From Arcobacter lacus (GTDB lineage: Bacteria > Campylobacterota > Campylobacteria > Campylobacterales > Arcobacteraceae), in contig NZ_MUXF01000016.1 of NCBI RefSeq assembly GCF_003063295.1, positions 93,273 to 157,272 on the forward strand: a stretch of DNA of 64,000 bases, in the 5' to 3' direction. Under the pieces are notes generated by a model. It was not told where the DNA came from and searched no databases. It saw only the letters and a program-made list of their open reading frames with translations. Below are positions 60,715 to 63,163 of this stretch, piece by piece. Both the position numbers and the translations under genes were made by a program. The first letter of the stretch is position 1, and every line of letters begins with the position of its first letter.

Positions 60715-60922
60715 AACTTTATCATAAAGCATATTATTGCTATAATAACTAAATTAAAAATTAGGAAAATAAATATGGTACTGATGATTGATAATCATTA
60801 AAATCATTAAATACATAAAACTACATAATACTATAAAGCCCCATATTTAAGTACTTTGTAAATCTTTTTCAAATATAATAAAATCTATAAAAATGTACAA
60901 AAATGGCTTAAAATATAAAGAA

Positions 60923-60941
60923 AGGGTAGCTATAGGGTAGC
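60923..60941 (+). repeat. Tandem 8-bp repeat before the integrase gene
   Basis: AGGGTAGC occurs at 60923-60930 and again at 60934-60941, an 11-bp period, so both copies face the same side of the helix. The second copy ends 7 bp before the ATG and its AGGG may double as a ribosome site. Confidence 0.6.
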
Positions 60942-60948
60942 ACGATTT

Positions 60949-62091
60949 ATGTCAAAAAGAATCAAATCAAAAAAGTATATAGGCGTTTATTATCGGGACT
61001 TAGCTAATAATGATAGAGTATTTGAATTTACCTATAAAGATATAAATGGGATTAAGAAATGGGTAAAAGTTGGATTAGCTTCGCATAATATTAACGAAGC
61101 ATATGCAAATAGAAAGAGAATTGAGACTATTAGTAAAATAAAATTAGATGGAGATGAGCCTGATTTTATAAAGAAAAGAAAAGCAGTTAAAAAGCTTATG
61201 TTAAATACTGTAGCTGTTGAGTATTTCAAAGATTATGAAACACGCTCTAAGCCAAACATATTTAAAGAGTCACTTTTTAAATATCAAAATAAAATAGAGC
61301 CATATTTTGGTAGCAAAGCAATAGATGAAATAAATAAAGAGTCCATAGATAAATGGTTAAATGCTTTTAAGGGTGAGTATAAACAGGCTTCTATAAATAG
61401 TTATCATGCAACATTTAAGGCTATAATTAATTTTGGTATTAAAGAATTTAAAGAGTTAGAAAATATTGCTAATCCCCTTAGCAAAATATCTATAAAAGAT
61501 CCACAAAATGAGAGAGAACGAGTTTTATCTACAAATGAAATCAAACATCTCTTTGATTGCTTAATTCATAAGCCAAAAGCATATTTATATGTTTCGGTTG
61601 CTCTTGGTACAGGAGCTAGACCACAAGCAATAATCACCACACAAAAAAAAGATTTGGATATTCCTAATAGAACATTGACATTTCCAGCACTTAAAAAAGG
61701 GAAAAGATATCCAGTTCCACTTATAGAGTCTTTATTTCAGAAACTAATAGAAGCAACAAAAGATTTAAAACCAGATGACTATATTTTTCATCCTGATAAT
61801 CCAAAAACTGACACAACTAGACCAATTACTTATGAAGGAATGAAAGGTCAAATACAACCACTTCTTGATGATTTGTTTAATAGAGGATTTGATAGTAATG
61901 ATAGAAAACATCGAGTAACATTTTATACTTTTAGGCATACATTTGCGACGCATTTAGTAAAAAATTCAAATGTAAATATTTTAGATGTTAAAAAGCTTAT
62001 GAGTCATAGCAGATTACAAATGACTGAAAGATACACAAAAGTTGAGTTACATAAAGGTACTCAAGATGCATTAAATAATTTGTACTCATGA
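60949..62091 (+). CDS. Tyrosine recombinase/integrase
   Basis: A 380-residue phage-type integrase. The N-terminal part (about 1-85) is an arm-binding-like domain, then a SAM-like core-binding domain (about 85-180) and the catalytic domain. Catalytic residues: Arg224 in GTGARPQ, Arg329 in YTFRHTF, His353 in LMSHS and the nucleophile Tyr362 in TERYT. The first His of the usual H-x-x-R box is replaced by Tyr326. It marks the left part of a small mobile insertion. No tRNA gene was found next to it. Confidence 0.92.
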   Translation: MSKRIKSKKYIGVYYRDLANNDRVFEFTYKDINGIKKWVKVGLASHNINEAYANRKRIETISKIKLDGDEPDFIKKRKAVKKLMLNTVAVEYFKDYETRSKPNIFKESLFKYQNKIEPYFGSKAIDEINKESIDKWLNAFKGEYKQASINSYHATFKAIINFGIKEFKELENIANPLSKISIKDPQNERERVLSTNEIKHLFDCLIHKPKAYLYVSVALGTGARPQAIITTQKKDLDIPNRTLTFPALKKGKRYPVPLIESLFQKLIEATKDLKPDDYIFHPDNPKTDTTRPITYEGMKGQIQPLLDDLFNRGFDSNDRKHRVTFYTFRHTFATHLVKNSNVNILDVKKLMSHSRLQMTERYTKVELHKGTQDALNNLYS

Positions 62092-62138
62092 TGTTAATTA
62101 TTTAAAATAAAAGTCTTTTAATAAAAGAGTTTTAAAGA

Positions 62139-62144
62139 TATAAT
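62139..62144 (+). promoter_or_regulatory. -10 element of the zeta-like gene
   Basis: A perfect TATAAT overlaps the first in-frame ATG (62143). If used, transcription starts near 62151, so translation must start downstream. Confidence 0.5.
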
Positions 62145-62175
62145 GTTATTTACATTTAGTATAGAGGATTTTAAG

Positions 62176-62835
62176 TTGAACAAATTTGAAAAAATTGCAA
62201 TTGATTATTTAAACAAAAATAAGAATGCTTTTTTACAAGAGTATACAGTAAATATAAATCCTATTGATGAAAAAATTGCTATTTTTACTGCTGGTATGAG
62301 TGGAGTTGGCAAAACCGAATTAAGTATTTTCTTTAAAGAGACAAATCCAAATTTTTTACATATTGACACAGATAATATAAGAGATTTTTTTAAATCTGTT
62401 GGGTATGATGGACAAAATTCAGATTTATTCCAAAAAGCTTCAAGCCGAGGATTCAATGAACTCTTTAATTACTCTTTAAAGCAGGGCTTTTCAATAATTT
62501 TAGATTCAAATTTATCTAACGTTGATTTGGCTATTCAAAATATTGAAAGATTATTAAAAAGAGACTATAATGTAGACATATATTATATTTATAACGATCC
62601 AAAAGTTTGCTTTGAATATGCAACCAGACGAGAAGTTGTAACACATAGGAAAGTTCCAAAGGATGTATTTATAAGAAGTAATATTAACTCTTATAATACG
62701 GTTTTGGAGTTAAAATCAATATTTAAAGAGAGTATAAATTTACATTTTATAGACAAGGAAAATGATTCTTTTTATAAAAATGTTGATGATACTTTTATTA
62801 TAAATAAAATCGGAGAAAATTTTGAAATTAGATAA
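62176..62835 (+). CDS. Zeta-toxin-like P-loop kinase
   Basis: A 219-residue protein counted from TTG 62176, preferred because AGAGGA (62163-62168) is 7 bp before it, while the ATG at 62143 overlaps a -10 element. The Walker A motif GMSGVGKT is at residues 40-47. IDTDNIRDFF, ILDSNLSN and the downstream RREVVTHRKVPKDVF segment match the UNAG-kinase (zeta) fold. Zeta toxins phosphorylate UDP-N-acetylglucosamine. No epsilon or PezA antitoxin gene lies upstream; a small gene overlaps the 3' end instead. Confidence 0.82.
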   Translation: MNKFEKIAIDYLNKNKNAFLQEYTVNINPIDEKIAIFTAGMSGVGKTELSIFFKETNPNFLHIDTDNIRDFFKSVGYDGQNSDLFQKASSRGFNELFNYSLKQGFSIILDSNLSNVDLAIQNIERLLKRDYNVDIYYIYNDPKVCFEYATRREVVTHRKVPKDVFIRSNINSYNTVLELKSIFKESINLHFIDKENDSFYKNVDDTFIINKIGENFEIR

Positions 62836-63034
62836 TAATTTTATGGAAAATGCACTAAATAGAATAAATGAATTACAACAGGAAATAATTAATAAATCTA
62901 AAAATATAGCTGGTGCTGAAGAGTTTGTAAAACAAAAAATGGCTCTTTATGAAGAAGATGAAAAAATTAGACAAATGGCTAAAAATATTCAGTTACAAGA
63001 AAAAATAATCACAGAAAAATTTTTTAATAAATAA
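62822..63034 (+). CDS. Small helical protein coupled to the zeta-like gene (candidate antitoxin)
   Basis: A 70-residue protein starting at TTG, with GGAG (62813-62816) 5 bp before it, overlapping the zeta-like gene by 14 bp. An ATG seven codons later is an alternative but has no ribosome site. Nearly the whole chain is charged and heptad-like (NALNRINELQQEIINKS; AEEFVKQKMALYEEDEKIRQ), so one or two long helices are expected. There are no Cys or Pro. No family is recognised. It could be an antitoxin in reversed order or a plasmid/phage accessory protein. Confidence 0.6.
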   Translation: MKLDNNFMENALNRINELQQEIINKSKNIAGAEEFVKQKMALYEEDEKIRQMAKNIQLQEKIITEKFFNK

Positions 63035-63039
63035 AAAAA

Positions 63040-63065
63040 GGAGACTGTTCAGAGTTTTGTGTCAG
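63040..63065. mobile_element. Possible terminal inverted repeat of an IS256-type element
   Basis: GAGACTGTTCAGAGTTTTGT followed by GTCA resembles, from memory, the ends of IS256-family elements. No transposase and no second end are in the window, so it would be a solo remnant or chance similarity. Confidence 0.3.
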
Positions 63066-63163
63066 TAACTGATAGTTCCTAGAATTTTAGCATATTTAAT
63101 CTTACTAATCCTAATTTGCGCCAAAAACTACAGGTTGAGGGACTTAATTTGAAATATAAATAT

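What the first reader, a model, noticed from the sequence alone, without database searches (positions are those of the whole stretch)
62139..63034. Zeta-like kinase with a coupled downstream small helical protein: a reversed-order toxin-antitoxin candidate
Seen: a P-loop kinase with zeta motifs (62176-62835), and a 70-residue helical, charged ORF (62822-63034) that overlaps its 3' end by 14 bp and has its own GGAG site. Known: epsilon and PezA antitoxins are encoded upstream of zeta/PezT. No ORF fits that place here (gap 62092-62175). Inference: the downstream protein may be the neutralising partner of a new type, carried by an integrase-borne insertion.
Basis: partly seen in the sequence, partly recalled or inferred. 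Interest (0 to 1): 0.65.

Follow-up and report, generated by a model that had tools for sequence, protein, structure and literature searches.

The report
Zeta kinase with downstream small partner
A zeta-toxin-like kinase in a mobile island of an Aliarcobacter-like bacterium is followed by a tiny helical protein that travels with this kinase across many bacteria and is probably its antidote, so this looks like an unnamed, widespread toxin-antidote pair with the two genes in the unusual order.

Summary
A 219-aa Zeta_toxin kinase (62176-62835) overlaps by 14 bp a 70-aa ORF (62822-63034) that has its own GGAG site. The small ORF is real: it is under purifying selection (dN/dS about 0.15-0.26 in most close pairs).

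The pairing is general. Of 47 non-redundant kinases, 37 have one of four small-protein families (49-99 aa) directly downstream and none upstream. Distances within the two genes correlate (Mantel r 0.85 and 0.89). Three of the four small families appear related to each other; the tested members match no Pfam, NCBIfam, PHROGs, PADLOC or PDB family at trusted scores.

The kinase model resembles zeta/PezT and AvrRxo1. It keeps the tested ATP/catalytic residues, but all five UDP-GlcNAc-binding residues are changed, so its substrate probably differs.

Best reading: a mobile zeta-superfamily toxin-antitoxin module whose uncatalogued antitoxin is encoded downstream. Reversed order has a precedent (AvrRxo1:Arc1), so this is a new variant of a known kind. 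In two genomes the same small protein follows a Fic gene instead, joined exactly at its ribosome-binding site, which suggests a toxin swap.

Toxicity and neutralisation were not testable here. The cassette lies at the left end of a roughly 33-kb island inserted at trpG.

The parts
60775..60801 (+). 5' fragment of trpG (MVLMIDNH*), left boundary (attL-like) of the island; intact trpG lies on the same contig about 32.8 kb to the right (C16:186860)
60924..60942 (+). GGGTAGCTATAGGGTAGCA, a 19-mer also found just upstream of intact trpG in this genome and in L015; candidate integrase-related end sequence
   Evidence: read by eye
60949..62091 (+). tyrosine integrase, 380 aa
   Evidence: Phage_integrase PF00589 E=6.7e-17
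62176..62835 (+). zeta-superfamily P-loop kinase, 219 aa from TTG; candidate toxin
   Evidence: PF06414 84 bits; AlphaFold2 pLDDT 91; best PDB fold matches zeta 1gvn, PezT, Ng zeta1, AvrRxo1
62812..62815 (+). GGAG ribosome-binding site of the small ORF, inside the kinase gene
   Evidence: conserved in sA homologues
62822..63034 (+). 70-aa helical small protein, candidate antitoxin of an uncatalogued family (sA)
   Evidence: dN/dS; co-occurrence and tree; single helix, pLDDT 80; no family match over cut-off

Best explanation
This is a two-gene, protein-protein (type II-like) toxin-antitoxin module of the zeta kinase superfamily with the antitoxin encoded second. The kinase is the candidate toxin: it would phosphorylate a small-molecule substrate that is probably not UDP-GlcNAc. 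The small helical protein, translated from an overlapping start at the kinase's 3' end, would bind and block it, presumably at the ATP side as epsilon, PezA and Arc1 do. Translational coupling would tie antitoxin synthesis to toxin synthesis. The module would stabilise the integrase-borne island that carries it. Shown here: gene anatomy, coding conservation, obligate-like pairing, co-inheritance, kinase fold and retained catalytic residues. Inferred: toxicity, neutralisation, binding mode and the island-stabilising role.
For: Kinase is Zeta_toxin with PF06414 84 bits against a cut-off of 22.3; the AlphaFold2 model matches zeta, PezT, Ng zeta1 and AvrRxo1 best in PDB. Residues equivalent to zeta K46, T47 (one Ser), D67 and K/R70 are kept in all 37 paired kinases. 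37 of 47 non-redundant kinases carry small family sA, sB, sC or sD immediately downstream (gap -68 to +21) and none upstream; sA, sB and sC each form one supported clade of the kinase tree. Kinase and small-protein distances correlate, r=0.85 (n=25) and 0.89 (n=12), 0 of 2000 permutations. Of 67 distinct small-ORF loci with upstream sequence, 50 follow an intact kinase, 11 a broken one, 4 none and 2 a Fic gene, while only one subfamily kinase (L021) lacks the small ORF. Purifying selection on the small ORF. Families sA, sB and sD appear related: profile scores exceed all 150 column shuffles for A-B, B-D and A-D. Searching with the small protein alone leads to a Zeta or Fic gene, apart from one decayed copy. 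By established practice, a small gene in a conserved pair with a known toxin is strongly suggested to be an antitoxin (Makarova 2009, PMC2701414).
Against: No toxicity, binding or complex model. The small protein has no recognisable DNA-binding domain, so autoregulation is unexplained. The excess of broken or absent kinases over absent small ORFs is not significant once gene length is considered (own estimate, p about 0.1), and some breaks may be sequencing errors. Family sC shows no detectable relationship to the others. A 95-aa upstream ORF is shared by L004 and L005, so a third component exists in some relatives, though not in the window clade.
Confidence: 0.72

Rival explanations
1. The small protein is an obligate positive subunit or chaperone of a non-toxic zeta-fold kinase (nucleotide or polynucleotide type), for instance part of an island-encoded defence or metabolic function; the pair is not a toxin-antitoxin system.
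For: The UDP-GlcNAc-binding residues are all changed in the window clade. The fold search also hits polynucleotide kinases, though lower, and PHROGs polynucleotide kinase matches at 1.5e-5. Strict pairing is equally expected for an obligate subunit.
Against: Small ORFs persist beside broken or missing kinases and beside a Fic gene, which an activating subunit would not need. The best Pfam and PDB matches are toxins. AvrRxo1 also lacks the UDP-GlcNAc residues and is still toxic with a downstream antitoxin (PMC4938570).
Confidence: 0.17
2. The antitoxin lies elsewhere: an upstream small ORF, an antisense RNA, or a cis-acting N-terminal domain as in EzeT; the downstream ORF is an accessory protein.
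For: A 95-aa upstream ORF is shared by L004 and L005.
Against: The window gap holds no plus-strand ORF of 20 aa or more, no Rfam hit and no repeat array. The upstream ORF is absent from the sA clade and reduced to a remnant in L006, beside a kinase nearly identical to that of L005. The P-loop starts at residue 40, leaving no room for an EzeT-like domain of about 82 aa.
Confidence: 0.08
3. The small ORF is a spurious or non-functional reading frame.
For: AT-rich genome, TTG start, overlap with the kinase gene.
Against: dN/dS 0.15-0.26 in most close pairs, conserved GGAG-TTG context, homologues in other species and genera.
Confidence: 0.02

Closest known systems
epsilon/zeta of pSM19035 and PezAT of Streptococcus pneumoniae
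   Same: Zeta_toxin fold, P-loop and catalytic residues; small partner protein
   Different: Their antitoxin is upstream and belongs to the epsilon/PezA family; here the partner is downstream and unrelated at trusted scores, and the UDP-GlcNAc-binding residues (E100, T118, R120, T121, T128) are all substituted in the window clade
AvrRxo1:Arc1 (Xanthomonas and others)
   Same: Zeta-fold kinase with a small neutralising partner encoded immediately downstream; UDP-GlcNAc-binding residues also not conserved
   Different: AvrRxo1 is about 380-420 aa and partly a secreted effector; Arc1 (81-98 aa) has a KExFD...YY motif not seen here; no sequence match between the small proteins at E up to 5 in PDB
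EzeT of E. coli (solitary zeta with an N-terminal antitoxin domain)
   Same: Zeta kinase without an upstream antitoxin gene
   Different: EzeT carries its antitoxin as an N-terminal domain of about 82 aa; the window kinase has none
Fic toxin with inhibitory antitoxin (VbhT/VbhA, Fic3/Fti3)
   Same: Two sA relatives sit downstream of a Fic gene and contain SKRIEG / SKQIEG, matching (S/T)xxxE(G/N)
   Different: The window protein reads SKNIAG at that place; known Fic antitoxins are usually upstream; 20 of the 22 Campylobacterota mob_myst_B loci examined lack the small ORF

Membership tests
Zeta_toxin kinase superfamily (PF06414) | Curated profile score | tested here: met
   84 bits against a cut-off of 22.3
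Zeta_toxin kinase superfamily (PF06414) | Walker A Lys/Thr, catalytic Asp67 and Lys/Arg70 | tested here: met
   K46, T47, D66, R69 in the window protein; kept in all 37 paired kinases apart from one T to S
Zeta_toxin kinase superfamily (PF06414) | Zeta fold | tested here: met
   AlphaFold2 pLDDT 91.4; PDB top hits zeta 1gvn E=6e-11, PezT, Ng zeta1, AvrRxo1
UDP-GlcNAc kinase (zeta/PezT substrate type) | UDP-GlcNAc-binding residues E100, T118, R120, T121, T128 | tested here: not met
   N, N, S, N, N in the window protein
epsilon/zeta or PezAT module | Antitoxin gene upstream of the kinase | tested here: not met
   No plus-strand ORF of 20 aa or more in 62092-62175; 0 of 47 relatives have the small families upstream
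epsilon/zeta or PezAT module | Antitoxin of epsilon or PezA family | tested here: not met
   No epsilon or PezA match in Pfam, NCBIfam or PDB
AvrRxo1:Arc1 | Small partner encoded directly downstream | tested here: met
   precedent PMC4938570
AvrRxo1:Arc1 | Arc1 homology and KExFD(x25-27)(Y/L)ExxYY motif | tested here: not met
   Motif absent by reading; the PDB profile searches with families sA and sD do not find Arc1
EzeT | N-terminal cis antitoxin domain of about 82 aa | tested here: not met
   P-loop begins at residue 40
Type II toxin-antitoxin system | Conserved two-gene pair on mobile elements | tested here: met
Type II toxin-antitoxin system | Toxicity of one product and neutralisation by the other through binding | not testable with these tools
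   Needs expression and pull-down experiments
Fic antitoxin (class I) | (S/T)xxxE(G/N) inhibitory motif in the window small protein | tested here: not met
   Window SKNIAG; only the two Fic-linked relatives L174 and L175 have SKRIEG / SKQIEG

The most novel reading that the evidence does not exclude
The small proteins form a new antitoxin superfamily that serves two unrelated toxin folds, a zeta-type kinase and a Fic protein, by toxin replacement upstream of a retained antitoxin gene, and the kinase branch has a substrate other than UDP-GlcNAc.
Probability: 0.18. Interest if true: 0.75.

Novelty: new variant of a known kind. Interest (0 to 1): 0.55.

Why it matters
Zeta-fold kinases annotated only as 'zeta toxin family protein' are common, and many look solitary because the expected upstream antitoxin is missing. 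If this is right, a large set of them, in Campylobacterota and in proteobacterial prophage-like contigs and plasmids, has an overlooked partner just downstream. That gives a simple co-expression test, adds an uncatalogued antitoxin family and points to a non-UDP-GlcNAc substrate. The Fic-linked copies would be a natural case of one antitoxin changing toxin partner.

Tried and rejected
Spurious ORF: rejected by dN/dS. Antitoxin in the upstream gap, as RNA or peptide: nothing found. EzeT-like cis domain: no room. Fic antitoxin motif as a general property: rejected, because it is present only in the two Fic-linked members and that alignment position is variable; 20 of the 22 mob_myst_B loci examined lack the small ORF. 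Kinase loss with small-ORF retention as strong evidence: weakened, since the kinase gene is about four times longer and some breaks may be sequencing errors. Internal promoter 62543-62571 (11 of 12 bases): its -10 hexamer is TACAAT, not TATAAT, in L072, L074 and L075 and such matches are expected by chance. Small-protein scan of viral contigs with family sA found nothing. Scans of plasmids for P0002, of phages for zeta (one unannotated record) and of E. coli genomes gave little. No natural kinase-small fusion was noticed, so no complex could be modelled.

Full report
Observation. The window holds, on the + strand, a tyrosine integrase (60949-62091), a kinase (TTG 62176-62835; the frame is open from ATG 62143) and a 70-aa ORF (62822-63034) overlapping the kinase by 14 bp. 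Homologues L072, L074 and L075 begin where TTG 62176 would start. GGAG lies at 62812-62815, six bases before TTG 62822, and this context recurs in the sA relatives. The gap 62092-62175 has no plus-strand ORF of 20 aa or more, no Rfam match and no conspicuous repeat array.

The kinase. It scores 84 bits to Pfam Zeta_toxin (cut-off 22.3), and the small protein has no match over any cut-off. A profile of nine relatives finds PezT and zeta first among solved structures. AlphaFold2 on 32 natural sequences gives pLDDT 91.4, and Foldseek ranks epsilon/zeta 1gvn (E 6e-11), PezT, gonococcal zeta1 and, at rank 13, AvrRxo1:ORF2. Mapping zeta numbering onto 37 relatives by alignment: K46, T47 (one Ser), D67 and the K/R70 position are kept in all. 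The five UDP-GlcNAc residues named in PMC4938570 are N, N, S, N, N in the window kinase. In the proteobacterial branch T118 is kept throughout and E100 in 18 of 25, while T128 is Asn in all. The ATP machinery is thus intact but the acceptor pocket differs, as in AvrRxo1; the substrate is probably not UDP-GlcNAc (inference).

The small protein is real. Across six relatives dN/dS is 0.15-0.26 for most pairs (higher, 0.36-0.63, with L074), against 0.73 for an out-of-frame control. AlphaFold2 predicts one long helix at moderate confidence (pLDDT 80), as often seen for an antitoxin segment without its partner (established knowledge, not tested).

The pairing is general. Relatives came from Campylobacterota genomes, GTDB contigs, IMG/VR and plasmids. 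Of 47 non-redundant kinases, 37 have a member of one of four small-protein families within -68 to +21 bp of their stop codon, none upstream. Families sA (window, 6 rows), sB (3) and sC (3) are each one supported clade on the kinase tree. sD (25) covers IMG/VR contigs and Shewanella and Polaromonas plasmids, with consensus FSDFxRNASSxEKKRVYxxVLxxATERQNxV. The ten without a partner are mostly longer or divergent kinases, including plasmid ones from Kosakonia and Enterobacter that are followed by a 210-217-aa protein. Only L021 sits within the sD branch without a small ORF. Pairwise distances in the two genes correlate strongly (Mantel 0.85 and 0.89; 0 of 2000 permutations).

Are the families related? 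Profile alignments place the sA stretch ALNRINELQQEIINKSKNI over the sB stretch AIKAINTKQEETIQKANKI and the sD stretch VLxxATERQNxVIxxAE. Scores exceed all 150 column shuffles for A-B, B-D and A-D; sC gives no convincing signal. A single origin for A, B and D is likely; for C it is open.

Reverse test. Searching 397 and 399 Campylobacterota genomes with the small protein or its profile returned clear hits beside the kinase (G000, G187, G285), beside a Fic gene (G177, G335), and one decayed copy (G266). Among 67 distinct small-ORF loci with enough upstream sequence, 50 follow an intact kinase, 11 a broken one, 4 none and 2 a Fic gene. The direction fits an antitoxin that may outlive its toxin, as arc1 does beside avrRxo1 pseudogenes. 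The kinase gene is, however, a fourfold larger target for damage and sequencing errors, so I treat this as weak support.

The Fic case. In G177 and G335 the order is integrase, HTH protein, Fic (mobile mystery protein B, 164 bits over a cut-off of 124), then the small protein. Fic genes of this family occur in 23 of 397 genomes; of 22 loci read, only these two have the small ORF. Their Fic proteins end in ...GDDFEL or ...GDNFVL, unlike other members, and the DNA GGAGATGATTTTGAA matches the kinase ending GGAGAAAATTTTGAA that carries the ribosome-binding site and start of the small gene. The toxin was apparently exchanged exactly at the small gene's translation start. The Fic-linked small proteins read SKRIEG and SKQIEG, matching the Fic inhibitory motif (S/T)xxxE(G/N) (motif as given in PMC5651007), while the window protein reads SKNIAG. 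That alignment position is variable, so the match could be chance. Whether the small protein restrains Fic is unknown.

Context. A trpG 5' fragment lies at 60775-60801, left of the integrase. Intact trpG lies on the same contig at C16:186860, so the integrase, kinase and small gene form the left end of an island of about 32.8 kb. From reading the ORFs, the island also appears to hold transposase, resolvase, RecT-like and type I restriction-modification genes (not family-tested). The sequence GGGTAGCTATAGGGTAGCA occurs near both ends. In G410 the same integrase (98% identical) precedes the pair. A Shewanella plasmid shows integrase, zeta, small ORF independently.

Host. By kinship, the closest named relative is Arcobacter (Aliarcobacter) cryaerophilus gv. 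crypticus (L015, 93% kinase identity). The genome itself is unnamed.

Mechanism and novelty. Best explanation: a type II-like module in which the second gene encodes the antitoxin, coupled by overlap, stabilising its island. Confidence is 0.72 for antitoxin function. Novelty was checked by ten literature searches in an open-access library. None described this pair; subscription papers and preprints are not covered. The reversed order alone is not novel because of AvrRxo1:Arc1. What is new is an uncatalogued partner family attached to a widespread kinase branch.

Noticed in passing
L188, L189 (G335:C60:3950-4691, G177:C42:10582-11350): Relatives of the window small protein overlap the 3' end of a Fic (mobile mystery protein B) gene, with the junction at the small gene's ribosome-binding site: an apparent toxin swap.
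   Followed up: yes
window 60775-60801 and G000:C16:186860: trpG fragment and intact trpG bracket an island of about 32.8 kb; the 19-mer GGGTAGCTATAGGGTAGCA occurs near both ends.
   Followed up: partly
L004 1193-1477, L005 1145-1426: A roughly 95-aa ORF (56% identical between the two) lies upstream of the kinase in an sB and an sC locus, with a remnant in L006; possibly a third component.
   Followed up: partly
L019 2157-2810, L020 2120-2749: Kosakonia and Enterobacter plasmid zeta genes are followed by a 210-217-aa protein without family matches, another possible downstream partner type.
   Followed up: partly
L159 1100-1805: An sD small ORF sits downstream of a HigBA-like pair (read by eye) rather than a zeta kinase.
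   Followed up: no
window 63040-63100: The sequence just after the small ORF resembles the end of an insertion sequence; an IS256-like transposase ORF lies further right in the island (C16:163602). Read by eye only.
   Followed up: no
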